Origin: Deltaproteobacteria bacterium | GTDB taxonomy: Bacteria; Myxococcota_A; Polyangia; Polyangiales; Polyangiaceae | Reading direction: 5' to 3' | Assembly: GCA_016875405.1 (NCBI GenBank) | Contig: VGRJ01000045.1 | Span: 1 to 32,447 of the forward strand | Length of the DNA stretch: 32,447 bases | Shown here: positions 9,416 through 14,648 of the stretch, piece by piece | How positions within the stretch are numbered: the first letter of the stretch is position 1 | Layout: every line of letters begins with the position of its first letter | Program-made: the position numbers and the translations under genes | Notes under the pieces: generated by a model | Told to the model about the DNA's origin: nothing | The model's input: the letters and a program-made list of their open reading frames with translations, nothing else | Database searches by the model: none

Positions 9416-12400
9416 TCAGGGACGCGGCGTGTGACCGAGCGACCTCAGCCACTGCTTCACACGCGCGCCAGCGGCCTCGGGCCAATCGAGCGTGTCGAAG
9501 TGACGGAGGAGCTGCGGCGTGTGATCTCCGCTCTGGTTCGCGTCTCGGAAAGCTCGGCGCGCGGCGTCGATCTCGCGCACCACATCGACCCATCGACCCT
9601 CGAGCGCGCCCATCCAGGCGAGCGTCAAATGGCGGTGCTGCTTCGGCTCCGCGTCGGCGAGCGCGACGGCCTCGCAACGGATGAGGGCATCGCGCGCAGC
9701 CGTCGGATCCTTCCGGTAGAGCGCGACCTGGGCGAGGAGGAGATAGGACTCCACCTTTCCCCAAGGATCGTTGAGTTTTGCATAGAGACCGCCCGCCGCA
9801 CGCGCGTGGACGTCGGCGGTGTTGGGGTGCCCCCCGTCGAGCGCGTTCATGGCGAGCAAGCGCTCGCACCCCGCCTCGCCACGCGGATTCTCGATGAGCC
9901 GAAACGCCTTCAGCGTCGCGGTCGCGCGCTCGTGGCAACGGATGAAGTTGCCCTCGCGATGGTCCGCGTGCGCGAGCGCGAGATCGCACTGCGCGACGCC
10001 GAGCCGGTACCCGATACGCTCGAGATCGGCGTGGGCGACTTGAAGCACCTCGCGCGCCCGCGCGGGTGAGCCGCCCGACTGCTCGATGAAGCCCTGAAGG
10101 ATGAGGCACTGCGAGCGCCCGAGCATGTCGCCGACTTGCAAGAACTTACCGGCGGCCTGGTGGAGAGCCTCGAGCGCCGTGGCGTGCTCGCCGAGGAGGT
10201 AGTCGATCTCGCCGATCAAGACCTCACACTGGGCCTGCCCGGCAAAATGATCGTTCTTCTTGAAGAGGGCATGCGCGCGAGCGACGAGGCGCCGCGCGTA
10301 GCTCGATGCCCCGAGATCCGAGGTGATGTGGCCCAGCAGGCGCGTCGCGTGGGCCTCGTTGATCTCGTCGCCGTAGTCTTTGAACGTGCGTCGCGAGACC
10401 TCGGCCTCGCGGCGCGCGTCTTCGAGAGCGCCCGAGTGGCGACTCGCCTCGGCACGCCAACGAAGGTGATGCGCGAGGTGGACGTCGGAGAGTTTGTCGT
10501 CGAGGAGCGACAGGTCGCGGAGCGTGGCGCTCGGATCACGCACCTGACTCCATGAACCCGCGACGTAGCCGTGGAGGAGCGTCGCGGCCTGCTCGAGCTC
10601 ACCGGCGCGATCGAGGTTCGTGACGCGGTGCCGTACGATGCGTCCGCTCGAAGCTGCGGGATGCAGGGCGAGCGCGTTCGACGCGAGCAAGAAGACGCGG
10701 CGCGCCTCGGACCGGCCCATGAGCTCTTGCAGCAAGTACTCCTGAAGGAGCGCGTGCGGCCACTGCAGCTGATCGGTGCCGGACATTAAGAGGAGCTGCG
10801 CCCGCTTCATCGCGCTCATGGCGCGCATGGCGTCGAGGCCAAGGTCGGTGAGGAGCGCGCGCAAGACGTCGCGCCGGATGTCACCGCCGAGCGCCGACGC
10901 CGCGTAGCCCGCGGGCCGCAGATCGGGGGGCAGCGCCGCGAGTCGCTCCTCCCACAGCTCGGCCGTGGTCTGCGCGGTGTGGGACAGCGCGTCGTCGCTC
11001 GCATCGTAGGTGCCATCGCTGCGCTGGGTGAGCGCGCCGCTCATCGCCCACGAATGAAGGAGCTGGAGCGCGAAGAGCGGGTTGCCCTTGGCGCGCTTCG
11101 CGGCAGCGACGAGGGCCGTGGCGCTGAGAGGCAACGTGTCGCGGAGGAGCGCCTCGGTCTCGCGCACCTCGAGCGGCTCGATCTCCATGCGACGGCCACC
11201 GAACTCCTCGAGAAGCAGCTCGATCCGCGCGCGGGCTGTCGGGTCGTTCGCGACATCCTCGTTACGCATCGTGGCGACGAAGAGGATCGGAACGTGCTTC
11301 AGATCGCGCTTGATGCGCGCGAGCTTTGCGAACGTGTCGGCCGGCGCGCGATGGAGATCATCGAGCCAGAAGAGGAGCGGGCGGCCGACGGAGGTCTTCT
11401 CGATCGTCCTTCGAATGACGAGCCACTTGAGCTCGGGGCGATCAAGGACGAAGCGCTTCTTCGTCGGACCGAGGACGTCGGCCTCCTCTTTGACGCGGCA
11501 GAGCCACGCCGCCGCACCCGCGACCCAGGTGAGCTCCTCGTCATCGGTAGGCGGGACGCGCCACAGGTTCATGAGGACCTTCTCGACGGTCGCGCGCTTG
11601 GCCTTCTCGAGCCGGTAGTGCTGCACGAGCCCGCCGACGACACCATCGAGTGGAGCGGCGATCTTCCGGTATTTCGCTCGAAGCGGTCGCATCAGGGCCT
11701 GCTCGTGCACCTCCTGACAGAGCCACTCCGCGATGCGGCTCTTCCCGACGCCGGCCGTCCCGGAGAGGAGTACGAAGCGGTGGAGCGGCTCCGACGCATC
11801 GGCGACCTCCTTCACGGTGTCGAGGAGCTCACGGCGCTCTTCGGTCCGTGCCACCATCGGGCTCGGGCGAATGCCGAGGAGCCCCGGCGTAGCGACGCTT
11901 GGCGCGCGCGTGTCGTCGACGAGTCCCTCGGAAGTAGAGCCCACGTCGCTGATGAGGCTCGGCCCGGTCCAGCTCGAATCGGGGCGACTCGGAGGCGCGA
12001 GAGGAGGCAACGTGCCCGGCGCACCGCTCGGACGGAACTCGGCCCATGCACGGCGAGCATCGGCCGCGAAATCGAAGCGATTCCAGGGCCACTTCTCCAT
12101 CAGTCGATGGATGAAGCCCTCGACGCCGGCGGGGACTCCTGCCGGCAACTTCACGGGAGGCGGCGGCGAGTTCTTGTGGTGCTCGAGCAGCTCCTCATTG
12201 GTTCCGTCGAACGGCTCCTCACCGACGAGCAGCGTGAAGATGAGGCAGCCGAGCGGGTAGAGATCCGTCGCCGGACCGACGTGCGGCGTCGCCATGCGGA
12301 TCTGCTCGGGCGCCATCCAGCCCGGCGTGCCGGCTCCATAACGAACGGTGGGCGCGACCTCGCGGGTGCCGTCCAGCCGGTGGTCGACGAGGTCGCGTGT

Positions 12401-12970
12401 CAGCCAGGCGAGGCCTAGGTCGAGCAGGTAGGCTCGGCTACGGTCGTCGCCCAGCGAGCGATCGAGCAAGATGTTCGAGGGCTTGAGATCGCCGTGGATC
12501 ACGCCGCGGGAGTGCGCGTGACCGAGGCCGGCGAGCACCTGATCGATGGTGCTCCAGATGACCTGCCAGGGGATCGCACCCTCGGTCTTCGCTCGGTAGA
12601 TCCACTCGTGAAGCGAGCGGCCCGAGGCGACGTCCATCACGATGTAAGGGGCGCCGTCCTCGAGGACCCCGTAGTCGCGAGCGCGGACGATCGTCGGATG
12701 CGAGAGCCCCGCGAGCGCGCGCGCCTCCTCGAAGAAGAACCACGCGTCGTCCTGGCGCGCCTTCCGTCGCTCCTTTGTGTCGGCGCCACCGCCCTCCTCC
12801 GACTCTTCCGCGCCGCGCGGCATGAGCTTCAGCGCGACGCGCTCATCGAGCGCAAGGTCGCGACAGAGGTAGACGTAGCCCATGCCACCGCGGCCGAGCT
12901 CGCGTCGAACCTGGTAGCGTCCCGCCAGCACGGAGCCGACGGCGAGGGCGTTTGGCTTGGCCGAAGCCAT
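9416..12970 (-). CDS. Ser/Thr protein kinase fused to AAA ATPase and TPR region
   Basis: This 1184-residue protein joins three parts. Residues about 19-290 are a Hanks kinase with GRGGMG (26-31), Lys48, the catalytic loop HGDLKPSN (Asp161, with Gly in place of the usual Arg), DLG instead of DFG (184-186) and MAPEQ. Residues about 375-720 are a STAND-like ATPase with Walker A SGTAGVGKS (Lys410) and Walker B LLFWLDDLHRAP. The rest, to about 1180, is a helical array of TPR-like repeats (for example YARRLVARAHALFKKNDHF, QCEVLIGEIDYLLGEHATAL). The plan resembles PknK-type regulators but without a DNA-binding domain. It should be a cytoplasmic signalling scaffold; no membrane segment is seen. I chose the ATG at 12970, 18 residues before the kinase, because longer starts overlap the divergent moaD. 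It is first of a three-gene minus-strand group. Confidence 0.93.
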   Translation of the reverse strand: MASAKPNALAVGSVLAGRYQVRRELGRGGMGYVYLCRDLALDERVALKLMPRGAEESEEGGGADTKERRKARQDDAWFFFEEARALAGLSHPTIVRARDYGVLEDGAPYIVMDVASGRSLHEWIYRAKTEGAIPWQVIWSTIDQVLAGLGHAHSRGVIHGDLKPSNILLDRSLGDDRSRAYLLDLGLAWLTRDLVDHRLDGTREVAPTVRYGAGTPGWMAPEQIRMATPHVGPATDLYPLGCLIFTLLVGEEPFDGTNEELLEHHKNSPPPPVKLPAGVPAGVEGFIHRLMEKWPWNRFDFAADARRAWAEFRPSGAPGTLPPLAPPSRPDSSWTGPSLISDVGSTSEGLVDDTRAPSVATPGLLGIRPSPMVARTEERRELLDTVKEVADASEPLHRFVLLSGTAGVGKSRIAEWLCQEVHEQALMRPLRAKYRKIAAPLDGVVGGLVQHYRLEKAKRATVEKVLMNLWRVPPTDDEELTWVAGAAAWLCRVKEEADVLGPTKKRFVLDRPELKWLVIRRTIEKTSVGRPLLFWLDDLHRAPADTFAKLARIKRDLKHVPILFVATMRNEDVANDPTARARIELLLEEFGGRRMEIEPLEVRETEALLRDTLPLSATALVAAAKRAKGNPLFALQLLHSWAMSGALTQRSDGTYDASDDALSHTAQTTAELWEERLAALPPDLRPAGYAASALGGDIRRDVLRALLTDLGLDAMRAMSAMKRAQLLLMSGTDQLQWPHALLQEYLLQELMGRSEARRVFLLASNALALHPAASSGRIVRHRVTNLDRAGELEQAATLLHGYVAGSWSQVRDPSATLRDLSLLDDKLSDVHLAHHLRWRAEASRHSGALEDARREAEVSRRTFKDYGDEINEAHATRLLGHITSDLGASSYARRLVARAHALFKKNDHFAGQAQCEVLIGEIDYLLGEHATALEALHQAAGKFLQVGDMLGRSQCLILQGFIEQSGGSPARAREVLQVAHADLERIGYRLGVAQCDLALAHADHREGNFIRCHERATATLKAFRLIENPRGEAGCERLLAMNALDGGHPNTADVHARAAGGLYAKLNDPWGKVESYLLLAQVALYRKDPTAARDALIRCEAVALADAEPKQHRHLTLAWMGALEGRWVDVVREIDAARRAFRDANQSGDHTPQLLRHFDTLDWPEAAGARVKQWLRSLGHTPRP

Positions 12971-13049
12971 GGGTGCGAGCGGGAGACTATCAATGCGCGG
13001 GCAGACTGCCAGCCCCACGAGCACTGAAAACGGTGCTAGGGTCCGCGCG

Positions 13050-13301
13050 ATGTCAGGCATGGTCAAGGTGCTTGCATTCGCCGGGGCTCGTGACGTAATC
13101 GGCAACGACGAGGTCGCCTGGGCCCTCGACGACGAGACGACCGCGACCGCCTTGCTCGACGCGATCATCGCTCGCTACCCGGCGCTCGGGCCGATGCGCC
13201 GCAGCCTTCGCCTCGCGGTGAACGGCCGCTACGCCGACGACGGCGACGTCGTGCGCCACGGGGACGAGGTCGCGCTGCTGCCACCGGTGGCCGGAGGCTA
13301 A
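13050..13301 (+). CDS. moaD: Molybdopterin synthase small subunit MoaD
   Basis: This 83-residue ubiquitin-like protein ends in the diagnostic PPVAGG: the C-terminal Gly-Gly is adenylated and turned into a thiocarboxylate that donates sulfur to precursor Z during molybdopterin synthesis. Family features are VKVLAFAGARDVIG at the N-terminus and LRLAVNGRYADDGDVVRHGDEVALLPPVAGG-type strands near the end. The start may be the ATG at 13050 (preceded by AGGG) or the ATG at 13059, three codons later. It is first of the moaD-moaC-moaE operon; moaC starts 7 bases after its stop. The divergent gap to the kinase-ATPase gene is 79 bases. Confidence 0.93.
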   Translation: MSGMVKVLAFAGARDVIGNDEVAWALDDETTATALLDAIIARYPALGPMRRSLRLAVNGRYADDGDVVRHGDEVALLPPVAGG

Positions 13302-13308
13302 GCGGCCG

Positions 13309-14202
13309 ATGGAAGGGGTCTTCGCGTTCGAAGGCATGGGCGACGACCTCGACCTCGTCCCGCTCGCCGCCCGCCGCGCCCTCGACGTCGCGGGCATCAA
13401 GGTCTCGCTCGCCGGGTGGCGTGCCTTGCCGCTCGAGGTGAGGCGCAGGCTCGTCCGCGAAGGGACGAGCGCGCAGGTCGCGCCGGAGGTGGTGCGCGCG
13501 CTGGCGAGTGGTGCGACCCCTCCTCCTGCGCCGTTGGCGCCGCTCGACGAGGCGACGCTGGAGCCGTGCGACGAGGACGCGCAGCGTCTCCTCGGAGCCA
13601 AGCGCCCGCTCGCCGAACACTGGCGAGGACTCCCACCGCTCCGGCGCTTCGCGCTTCGGCACCTCGCCCGACGCGGCGACGCCGAGCGAATCGCGCGCGC
13701 TTACGACGAGCTCGTCGCGCCCGCACTCACGCACCTCGACGCCAAGGGGCAAGCCCACATGGTCGACGTGGGCGAAAAGGCTGCGGCGCATCGGGTGGCG
13801 ATCGCGACGGCCTCGGTGCGGATGTCGCCCTCGACAGCGGCGCTCGTCGCAGCGCACGGAGGCCCAAAGGGCGACGTCCTCGCGACCGCGCGGATCGCGG
13901 GGCTCCTCGCCGCGAAGCGCACCTCGGAGCTCATTCCCTTGTGTCACCCCATCGCCTTGACGCGCGTCTCCGTCGAGCTCGACGTCGACGTCGAGGCGGG
14001 GCTCGTTCGAGTCAACGCGCGAGCCGAGACTCGAGACCGAACGGGGGTCGAGATGGAGGCGTTGACCGCCGCGAGCATCGCGGCGCTGACCGTCTACGAC
14101 ATGGTGAAGGGTGTCGAGCGCGGCGCCACCATCGAGCACGTCGTGCTCACCGAGAAGTCGGGCGGCCGCAGCGGTGCTTACCGCCGCGGGGAGACCCCGT
14201 GA
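13309..14202 (+). CDS. moaC: Fusion of nitrate-reductase-associated domain with MoaC (cyclic pyranopterin monophosphate synthase)
   Basis: Residues about 139-297 are a complete MoaC, which turns the GTP-derived cyclo-dehydro intermediate made by MoaA into cyclic pyranopterin monophosphate. Motifs seen are THLDAKGQAHMVDVGEKAA, GDVLATARIAGLLAAKRT, SELIPLCHPIALTRV and TGVEMEALTAASIAALTVYD with catalytic Asp264, then KSGGRSG. Residues 1-137 are unusual for MoaC: VFAFEG, VAGIKVSLAGWRALPLEVRR and HWRGLPPLRRFALRHLAR match both halves of the 'nitrate reductase associated protein' family, normally a separate protein of about 150 residues found in nitrate-assimilating bacteria. The reading frame is continuous with no stop between the parts, and the next gene moaE overlaps its stop (GTGA at 14199). 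The fusion implies a link between cofactor synthesis and a molybdoenzyme; that is inference. Confidence 0.88.
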   Translation: MEGVFAFEGMGDDLDLVPLAARRALDVAGIKVSLAGWRALPLEVRRRLVREGTSAQVAPEVVRALASGATPPPAPLAPLDEATLEPCDEDAQRLLGAKRPLAEHWRGLPPLRRFALRHLARRGDAERIARAYDELVAPALTHLDAKGQAHMVDVGEKAAAHRVAIATASVRMSPSTAALVAAHGGPKGDVLATARIAGLLAAKRTSELIPLCHPIALTRVSVELDVDVEAGLVRVNARAETRDRTGVEMEALTAASIAALTVYDMVKGVERGATIEHVVLTEKSGGRSGAYRRGETP

Positions 14203-14648
14203 GTCGGACCGGCCTGCGTGAGACGCGCCTCGCCCTCGACGAAGCGGTTGCTCTCGTTCAAGACGACGCCGCAGGCGCCATCGCGACGTTCCTCGGTGTG
14301 GTCCGCGACCACAGCGGCGGGCGCGCCGTCACCCTGCTCGAGTATCACGCGTACCCGAGCATGGCGGAGCGCGAGCTCGCCGCGATCGCGACCGAGCTCG
14401 AAGTCGAGTTCTCTGGCGCACGCATCGCGTGCTTCCACCGGGTCGGGACGCTGCGCGTCGGGGAGGCCGCGGTCGTCTGCGCCGTGAGCTCGCCCCATCG
14501 CGACGCGGCGTTCTCGGCGTGCCGAGAGCTCATCGACCGCGTGAAGGCGCGGGTGCCGATCTGGAAGCGCGAACACGGCCCCGAAGGTCCGTACTGGGTT
14601 GGCTGGGAAGACGCGCGGACCCCCAGCAAACGCGAGTCATCCGCGTAG
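14199..14648 (+). CDS. moaE: Molybdopterin synthase catalytic subunit MoaE
   Basis: This 149-residue protein is the large subunit of molybdopterin synthase, which partners MoaD to insert two sulfurs into cyclic pyranopterin monophosphate. It has the family blocks GAIATFLGVVRDHSGGR, LEYHAYPSMAERELAAIA, HRVGTLRVGEAAVVCAVSS-type and VKARVPIWKREHGPEG, where the two lysines correspond to the active-site pair of E. coli MoaE (Lys119 and Lys126). The start is the GTG at 14199, which overlaps the moaC stop by 4 bases (GTGA), so translation is coupled. Its last 12 bases overlap the convergent peptidase M19 gene. Confidence 0.93.
   Translation: MSRTGLRETRLALDEAVALVQDDAAGAIATFLGVVRDHSGGRAVTLLEYHAYPSMAERELAAIATELEVEFSGARIACFHRVGTLRVGEAAVVCAVSSPHRDAAFSACRELIDRVKARVPIWKREHGPEGPYWVGWEDARTPSKRESSA

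What the first reader, a model, noticed from the sequence alone, without database searches (positions are those of the whole stretch)
13309..14202. Nitrate-reductase-associated domain fused to MoaC
MoaC is normally about 160 residues. Here a 137-residue N-terminal part matches both conserved ends of the 'nitrate reductase associated protein' family (VAGIKVSLAGWRALPLEV, HWRGLPPLRRFALRHLAR). That family is uncharacterised and known only by its link with assimilatory nitrate reductase. A fusion to a cofactor-synthesis enzyme suggests that the domain acts in making or delivering molybdenum cofactor rather than in nitrate reduction itself. The frame is continuous and the operon is otherwise normal.
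Basis: partly seen in the sequence, partly recalled or inferred. Interest (0 to 1): 0.75.

Follow-up and report, generated by a model that had tools for sequence, protein, structure and literature searches.

The report
NarM domain fused to MoaC enzyme
A little-studied helper domain so far linked to nitrate reductase is joined, in this bacterium and many of its relatives, to enzymes that build the molybdenum cofactor, which suggests that the helper works in making or handing over that cofactor.

Summary
Confirmed. Window 13309-14202 (+) is one open frame: a Nitr_red_assoc/NarM-type domain (PF09655, 42.7 bits, cut-off 25), then a complete MoaC (TIGR00581, 193.1 bits, cut-off 141.5), between moaD and moaE. 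No artefact: 29 of 60 genomes of its family carry a catalytic NarM:MoaC; in 28 of the 29 it is the only normal MoaC. New here: the domain is also fused to MoaE (1 locus), to MoaC plus MoaE (2) and, as separate events, to MobA on its C side and on its N side (2 genomes of one genus each). Every partner recognised is a molybdenum-cofactor (Moco) enzyme or a MoaC relic; Pfam found no other partner in the 16 unfused copies. The window's genome has no recognised nitrate reductase among its PF00384 proteins, and the domain does not track NasC-like genes in the family. Best reading: a Moco-pathway docking or hand-over domain (role about 0.8; tethering about 0.4). A paralogue on a dead MoaC keeps the NarM residues. 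Against: canonical NarM is tied to nitrate reductase in cyanobacteria, a divergent branch sits beside cbb3-oxidase-like genes, no client or ligand was identified, and the window domain fails NCBI's NarM cut-off (50.7 against 110).

The parts
13309..14202 (+). narM:moaC fusion gene, 297 aa
   Evidence: open frame; same fusion in 29 of 60 family genomes, window included
13321..13686 (+). Nitr_red_assoc / NarM-type domain, residues 5-126
   Evidence: PF09655 42.7 bits, over cut-off; predicted helical domain, pLDDT 96.4, pTM 0.90
13687..13719 (+). end of the helical domain and start of the junction, residues 127-137; the low-confidence stretch of the full model lies at about residues 131-160
   Evidence: block pLDDT 78, 57, 76 for residues 131-140, 141-150, 151-160 in the full-length model; no ATG/GTG/TTG codon between residues 76 and 151
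13720..14187 (+). MoaC (cyclic pyranopterin monophosphate synthase), residues 138-293
   Evidence: NF006870 216.7 bits and TIGR00581 193.1 bits, both over cut-off; K187, C212, H213, E248, E250, D264, K267 match the aligned E. coli positions 51, 76, 77, 112, 114, 128, 131; model matches 4pyd at TM 0.94 of the target
13050..13301 (+). moaD (molybdopterin synthase sulphur carrier, ends in GG); start at 13050 or 13059
   Evidence: ThiS PF02597 54.7 bits over cut-off; TIGR01682 moaD 61.5 bits, just below its cut-off 66.15 (scanned with the longer frame from 12957); sequence
14199..14648 (+). moaE (molybdopterin synthase catalytic subunit), overlaps the fusion gene by 4 nt
   Evidence: PF02391 133.1 bits; a moaE match within 800 nt downstream in 39 of 44 fused loci with 500 nt or more there, two of the 39 being NarM:MoaC:MoaE in one frame

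Best explanation
The N-terminal domain is a molybdenum-cofactor (Moco) pathway domain. It most likely works as a docking module: joined to MoaC, which forms hexamers (recalled), it would display several copies of a rigid helical domain that binds a later Moco enzyme (MoaE, MobA) or an apo-molybdoenzyme, so that cofactor synthesis happens next to the place of use. In other lineages the same domain is attached to MoaE or MobA, or is a free protein, because any step of the same assembly line can carry it. Shown: the fusion, its conservation, the set of recognised fusion partners, intact MoaC residues, no recognised nitrate reductase among the host's PF00384 proteins. Inferred: a Moco role (about 0.8); tethering as the mechanism (about 0.4); which client it serves (not identified).
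For: Catalytic NarM:MoaC in 29 of 60 family genomes, the only normal MoaC in 28 of the 29. Among 78 distinct domains pooled: MoaC 44, MoaC+MoaE 2, MoaE 1, MobA at the C side 2, MobA at the N side 2, degenerate MoaC 11, unfused 16. The pool was typed with MoaC, MoaE and MobA profiles only, so I scanned the full frames of all 16 unfused copies with Pfam: no other domain at E 0.01. The two MobA fusions have opposite order and fall on either side of a branch supported 98/97, so they are separate events. Unfused copies have a MobA-like, MoaC, MoaD or MoaE gene in the stretch read in 6 of 12 loci (0 of 4 of the cbb3 type). The NarM:MoaE gene directly follows a moaA (302.7 bits, cut-off 284.05). On three Acetobacteraceae plasmids the NarM-type gene is directly upstream of an FdhF/YdeP oxidoreductase, in two with Moco-type genes and fdhD. 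The window genome's five PF00384 proteins are an FdhF/YdeP protein over cut-off, a NuoG-like protein and three others far below every nitrate reductase model. A confident separate fold on an unsure junction suits a tether. NarM residues persist where MoaC is dead.
Against: No binding, activity or structure data. MoaC acts before molybdenum enters (recalled), which is odd for a delivery factor. Co-occurrence tests named no client: NasC-like genes p 0.74; YdeP p 0.06 in the family and no excess in the phylum (8 of 37 against 97 of 340); the L103-type oxidoreductase 13 of 37 against 7 of 34 within the order, p 0.20. 25 of 54 MoaC-bearing family genomes have no catalytic fusion that I could see (two of them cut by contig ends). 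A divergent branch sits by genes that look like cbb3 oxidase, ccoG and globin genes with no Moco gene in reach, and the Agrobacterium copy is in an amino-acid cluster. Five of 12 unfused loci show neither a Moco gene nor a molybdoenzyme of the kinds sought.
Confidence: 0.45

Rival explanations
1. The domain binds a pterin intermediate or the finished cofactor itself and acts as a carrier or insertion chaperone; fusion to MoaC, MoaE or MobA passes the product straight to it.
For: The partners make or consume three successive pterin compounds (cPMP, molybdopterin, MGD; pathway recalled). Arginines R22, R23, R45, R113 and tryptophans W37 and W105 are invariant in 22 fused sequences and could bind phosphate and pterin. 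The NCBIfam title calls NarM a maturation protein.
Against: The compounds differ, so one pocket for all is not obvious. R22 is lost in 7 of 11 degenerate copies, and W37 is Y or F in some rows of the wider set. Conservation at PLAARRALD in that wider set is inflated, because it was the search pattern. No fold match to help (inconclusive).
Confidence: 0.25
2. A regulatory domain: it senses a signal (client enzyme, redox state, product) and gates MoaC, hence the total Moco flux.
For: MoaC is an early step of the pathway, a sensible control point (recalled). A paralogue keeps the NarM domain on a dead MoaC, 6 of 11 with a C-terminal hydrophobic stretch, as a sensor or decoy might.
Against: The same domain sits on MoaE and on either side of MobA, which are not first steps. 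No known ligand-binding fold found (inconclusive).
Confidence: 0.1
3. The domain serves nitrate reductase alone, as canonical NarM in cyanobacteria; the fusions are by-products of operon order.
For: narM and narB occur in 119 and 118 of 132 picocyanobacteria (passage of PMC9361551). Free NarM lies near a NapA-like gene (893.6 bits, cut-off 904) in one genome. Three of the four family genomes with canonical free NarM have a NasC-like enzyme (two genera only).
Against: Window genome: no recognised nitrate reductase among its PF00384 proteins. Only 5 of 29 genomes with the catalytic fusion have a NasC-like gene over 650 bits. Three Acetobacteraceae copies lie with YdeP, with no annotated nitrate reductase in the stretches shown.
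Confidence: 0.1
4. Frameshift, chimaera or overcalled domain.
For: None found.
Against: Family-wide conservation with similar spacing in most members, both domains over Pfam cut-offs, high-confidence model.
Confidence: 0.01

Closest known systems
Nitr_red_assoc, PF09655 / TIGR02664 NarM (nitrate reductase maturation protein)
   Same: Homologous domain over the Pfam cut-off; similar length and motif (LPLxxRRxLDxAG...W..L....R)
   Different: Below the NCBI NarM cut-off (50.7 against 110), on the other side of a 98/97 branch from the canonical free copies, fused to MoaC, host without a recognised nitrate reductase
MoaC, cyclic pyranopterin monophosphate synthase (TIGR00581, NF006870)
   Same: Full-length, over the equivalog cut-off, catalytic residues present, between moaD and moaE
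   Different: Carries an extra 137-residue N-terminal part
Known MoaC fusions in NCBIfam: MoaC/MoaB (NF002947), MoaC/MOSC (NF011069), MoaC/MobA (NF011070)
   Same: A MoaC joined to another Moco-related domain
   Different: Those partners differ; the window protein scores 173.7, 164.6 and 126.7 against cut-offs 285, 457 and 606. No NarM:MoaC model appeared among the hits
MobA, molybdenum cofactor guanylyltransferase (TIGR02665), as partner of NarM in relatives
   Same: Same assembly line; fused to the same domain in 4 genomes (two genera)
   Different: Partner in other families of the order, not in the window; of the two MobA domains scanned, both are below the equivalog cut-off (77.0 and 63.8 against 151.85) though over Pfam's NTP_transf_3 cut-off

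Membership tests
Nitr_red_assoc (PF09655) | score over the curated Pfam cut-off of 25 bits | tested here: met
   42.7 bits in the whole protein, 45.9 for residues 1-141 alone
NarM (TIGR02664, subfamily) | score over the curated cut-off of 110 bits | tested here: not met
   50.7 bits. The four canonical free copies of the family also stay below, at 109.0, 98.9, 88.8 and 85.6
NarM (TIGR02664, subfamily) | host has a nitrate reductase that it matures | tested here: not met
   5 PF00384 proteins in the genome (99.13% complete by the tool), none near a NasC, NasA, NapA or NarG cut-off; a sulphite-oxidase-type nitrate reductase was not sought
NarM (TIGR02664, subfamily) | needed for molybdoenzyme activity | not testable with these tools
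   needs a deletion
MoaC (TIGR00581) | score over the equivalog cut-off of 141.5 bits | tested here: met
   193.1 bits, positions 1-148 of 148
MoaC (TIGR00581) | catalytic residues (K51, H77, E112, E114, D128, K131 in E. coli numbering; list recalled, K51 and D128 also named as variants in PDB titles) | tested here: met
   K187, H213, E248, E250, D264, K267
MoaC (TIGR00581) | hexamer that makes cPMP | not testable with these tools
   needs protein
Known bifunctional MoaC fusions (NF002947, NF011069, NF011070) | whole-protein score over the fusion model's cut-off | tested here: not met
   173.7 of 285, 164.6 of 457, 126.7 of 606 bits
Known fold of a Moco chaperone or carrier | structural match of the predicted domain to a solved chain | tested here: inconclusive
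   Foldseek best E 4.8; second look best Z 3.5 over 62 residues to a designed protein

The most novel reading that the evidence does not exclude
PF09655 is a general Moco-assembly module, of a fold without a clear match in the PDB and probably of internally duplicated origin. It recruits Moco enzymes (MoaC, MoaE, MobA) and molybdoenzymes of several kinds; nitrate reductase in cyanobacteria is just its best-known client. In some relatives a second copy on a dead MoaC, often with a hydrophobic C-terminal stretch, has become a separate membrane-bound loader or sensor.
Probability: 0.35. Interest if true: 0.75.

Novelty: new variant of a known kind. Interest (0 to 1): 0.6.

Why it matters
How Moco passes from its synthesis enzymes into molybdoenzymes is an open question, and NarM is a named maturation factor whose mechanism I know of no account of. 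Fusions to MoaC, MoaE and MobA say which pathway it belongs to and give ready-made pairs (domain plus known enzyme) for binding and activity tests. They also warn against reading 'nitrate reductase associated protein' as evidence of nitrate use in a genome.

Tried and rejected
Frameshift or chimaera: rejected (see rivals). Nitrate reductase as the linked enzyme: in 60 family genomes 9 of 12 with a NasC-like hit over 650 bits have a NarM-type domain against 32 of 48 without, p 0.74. The 650 line is mine, set in the gap between 655.7 and 500.8 bits; no hit reaches the model's own cut-off of 1100, and one genome (G337) gave two pieces of 681.3 and 141.7 bits. One of these proteins (L218) was scanned: NasC is its best model, 818.2 bits, but formate dehydrogenase alpha follows at 646.6 of 666, so 'NasC-like' is as far as I go.

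FdhF/YdeP as the client, suggested by the Acetobacteraceae plasmids: 15 of 17 family genomes with a hit over 500 bits (my line) have a NarM-type domain against 26 of 43 (p 0.06), but over the phylum 8 of 37 NarM-positive against 97 of 340 NarM-negative genomes have it over the cut-off (p 0.44). Not supported as the general client. The L103-type oxidoreductase of the window's genome, a close relative of which lies beside NarM:MobA in two genomes of one genus: a hit over 900 bits in 13 of 37 NarM-positive against 36 of 340 others (p 0.0002), but within the order 13 of 37 against 7 of 34 (p 0.20), so shared ancestry may explain it.

Known fold for the domain: none found. Full-length domain arrangement: pTM 0.54, not usable. 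Promoter and terminator scan: nothing. moaD upstream by single-sequence search in only 6 of 46 fused loci; I draw nothing from it, since one MoaD query may miss diverged ones. In print: searches listed no paper whose title or abstract start speaks of this fusion ('NarM' with 'MoaC', whole words: 0 papers); the library holds only open-licence PMC papers. The 2004 NarM paper of Maeda and Omata is recalled only and is not held. In PMC4683180 'NarM' means a different, archaeal membrane anchor (passages).

Limits of the counts: the 78 domains pool what my searches fetched and are not a census; one domain (G392 C165) was never read, and the MoaC genes of G390 and G403 are cut by contig ends. Of the 62 fused frames only some were scanned with Pfam; long open frames before the domain in three (L147, L153, L181) showed no further domain. 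Phyla other than Myxococcota were seen only through 17 plasmid records, 7 of them covering 80% or more of the query; I opened four. The single scan of named genomes used one pattern, P[LM]AARRALD, which favours the MoaC-fused branch.

Full report
What is there. The gene at 13309-14202 (+) encodes 297 residues without interruption. Residues 5-126 match Pfam Nitr_red_assoc at 42.7 bits (cut-off 25) and residues 151-286 match MoaC at 173.4 bits. NCBIfam calls the second half a full MoaC (193.1 bits against 141.5) and gives the first half 50.7 bits for TIGR02664, NarM, whose cut-off is 110. The gene follows moaD (start 13050 or 13059, end 13301) by 7 nt and overlaps moaE (14199-14648) by 4 nt. There is no start codon between residues 76 and 151, so MoaC cannot be made alone with its normal N-terminus; an ATG at residue 151 would give a MoaC short of its first 13 residues.

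How common it is. In a sample of 377 genomes of the phylum, 37 have a PF09655 domain, all in the window's own order. I read all 37 frames. In the window's family 22 of 22 are fused to a MoaC or MoaC-like domain: 19 normal, 3 degenerate; of the 15 in other families 4 are fused to MobA and 11 are unfused. In a second sample of 60 genomes of the family, 54 have MoaC, 38 have PF09655 by Pfam, 37 of them over the cut-off, and 29 have a catalytic NarM:MoaC (profile search of the frames; tallied). In 28 of these 29 it is the only normal MoaC; one genome (G389) has a second, unfused one, and two others have a degenerate one besides. A scan of named genomes gave 36 loci, titled Polyangium, Polyangiaceae, Polyangia, Myxococcales, Myxococcota or undefined (delta)proteobacteria, Polyangium fumosum DSM 14668 among them; 31 of 36 are fused to MoaC (one of them to MoaE as well), one to MoaE alone, and 4 are unfused. 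A moaE match follows within 800 nt in 39 of 44 distinct fused loci with enough sequence, two of them in the same frame.

Other fusions. Pooling the loci gave 78 distinct NarM-type domains: 44 NarM:MoaC, 2 NarM:MoaC:MoaE, 1 NarM:MoaE, 2 NarM:MobA, 2 MobA:NarM, 11 NarM with a degenerate MoaC, 12 free and 4 free ones of a cbb3-oxidase-like neighbourhood. The typing used MoaC, MoaE and MobA profiles; a Pfam scan of the whole frames of the 16 free ones found PF09655 and nothing else at E 0.01. Pfam confirms the partners in the examples scanned: MobA-like NTP transferase at 94.1 and 78.8 bits (cut-off 27), MoaE at 116.5 and 132.9 bits (cut-off 23.4). The NarM:MoaE locus belongs to an assembly that also has a NarM:MoaC, and a moaA (302.7 bits, cut-off 284.05) lies directly before it. 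In the tree a branch supported 98/97 parts 12 rows (6 canonical free ones, NarM:MobA, the cbb3 type) from 66 (the MoaC fusions, the degenerate ones, NarM:MoaE, MobA:NarM, 6 free). The two kinds of MobA fusion are therefore separate events, with opposite order; each is known from two genomes of one genus. The tree rests on 132 columns and many forks are open.

Neighbours of free copies. Of 12 free loci, 6 have a MobA-like, MoaC, MoaD or MoaE gene within the stretch read (about 5-7 kb each side where the contig allows), one has a NapA-like gene (893.6 bits against a cut-off of 904), one of the six also has another molybdopterin oxidoreductase, and 5 have none of these. The four cbb3-type loci have none; by eye they lie among ccoN-, ccoG- and globin-like genes. 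On plasmids, 17 records have a relative of the canonical form. I opened four. In Kozakia, Gluconobacter and Komagataeibacter it is directly upstream of an FdhF/YdeP oxidoreductase; Kozakia adds an NTP transferase and fdhD, Komagataeibacter moaA, moaD, moaE and fdhD, and the Gluconobacter stretch ends at the record's end. In Agrobacterium leguminum it lies in an amino-acid cluster without annotated Mo genes.

The window's genome. It is 99.13% complete by the tool's figure. It has five PF00384 proteins: an FdhF/YdeP protein (884 bits, cut-off 582), a NuoG-like one (354 bits, its best model, below the cut-off 470), and three whose best model is formate dehydrogenase alpha at 210-224 bits, far below the cut-off of 666; none comes near NasC, NasA, NapA or NarG. 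Four of the five have the PF01568 domain, and there is one PF20256 match, a xanthine-dehydrogenase-type protein. So oxidoreductases of the bis-MGD kind exist but no recognised nitrate reductase. Across the 60 family genomes the NarM-type domain does not follow NasC-like genes (9 of 12 against 32 of 48, p 0.74), nor clearly YdeP (15 of 17 against 26 of 43, p 0.06). The canonical free form, in four genomes of two genera, does occur with both (3 of 4 and 4 of 4; p 0.02 and 0.005 if genomes were independent, which they are not); this is evidence for the ordinary NarM role of that form.

Structure. The domain alone is predicted with pLDDT 96.4 and pTM 0.90 as a helical unit. No solved relative by sequence and no fold match by Foldseek (best E 4.8) or the second look (best Z 3.5); this does not prove a new fold. 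In the full fusion both halves are confident (mean pLDDT 91.2) but the junction is not, and pTM is 0.54: two units whose arrangement is unknown. The MoaC half superposes on E. coli MoaC with cPMP, 4pyd, at TM 0.94 of the target, 1.5 A. The two halves of the NarM domain resemble each other: profile comparison E 6.5e-5, probability 64%; 10 of 78 sequences at p 0.01 or less in shuffles.

Dead MoaC copies. In 11 sequences (two groups on the tree) MoaC has lost K51, H77 and E112 in 11 of 11 (E112 is D in two), E114 in 9 and K131 in 7, while D128 stays in 11 of 11; in the NarM domain R23, W37, R45, G52, W105 and R113 stay in 11 of 11, R22 in 4 (E. coli numbering recalled, mapped through). Six of the 11 end in a stretch with hydropathy over 2.2, likely a membrane helix; one of the other five is cut by the contig end. 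Selection thus seems to hold the NarM half apart from MoaC catalysis.

Reading. Several kinds of Moco partner, at least two separate MobA fusions, neighbouring Moco genes and a host without a recognised nitrate reductase point to a Moco-pathway role. The literature seen fits: in cyanobacteria a 'nitrate reductase associated protein' co-occurs with nitrate reductase and Moco genes (passages of PMC5862535), and narM occurs about as often as narB (passage of PMC9361551). A survey of Mo-related fusions has no occurrence of NarM or Myxococc in its main text (term search of PMC6147048). Since the partners act at different steps, a docking or assembly role is more likely than a step-specific one; a pterin carrier is the main rival. 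The client is not identified.

Noticed in passing
L034, L037, L108-L114 (and a milder group L035, L115): NarM domain joined to a MoaC that has lost its catalytic residues, 6 of 11 with a C-terminal hydrophobic stretch; a likely pseudo-enzyme paralogue. Two genomes (G383, G386) have it in addition to a normal NarM:MoaC, and one (G400) has two such genes and no normal MoaC match.
   Followed up: partly
L033, L045, L046, L047: Divergent PF09655 proteins (27.0 to 39.4 bits, cut-off 25) between genes that look by eye like cbb3 oxidase genes (ccoN, ccoG) and a globin; a role there would not be Moco.
   Followed up: partly
window 13321-13686: The NarM domain looks internally duplicated: W37/L40/R45 answer W105/L108/R113 at the same spacing, and the two halves align by profile.
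   Followed up: partly
L231, L233, L234: Acetobacteraceae plasmids: 'nitrate reductase associated protein' directly before an FdhF/YdeP oxidoreductase, with fdhD and Moco-type genes in two of three; a candidate NarM-YdeP system.
   Followed up: partly
L232 7968-8444: A NarM relative on an Agrobacterium leguminum Ti plasmid in a diaminopimelate decarboxylase / aspartate dehydrogenase cluster, with no Mo gene annotated or matched near it.
   Followed up: no
window 9416-13168 (-) and L216 4941-8486: A long Ser/Thr-kinase-like gene lies divergently next to the moaD-moaC side in the window; a similar one lies beside NarM:MoaC in G401 (read by eye).
   Followed up: no
G394, G102, G071, G401, G196, G376 (hits): Molybdopterin oxidoreductase frames with a single in-frame TGA; perhaps selenocysteine formate dehydrogenases (inferred, not tested).
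   Followed up: no
L040, L041: NarM:MobA lies next to a close relative (66% identity) of a molybdopterin oxidoreductase in the window's genome (G000 C2:79301-81559): a candidate client to test first.
   Followed up: partly
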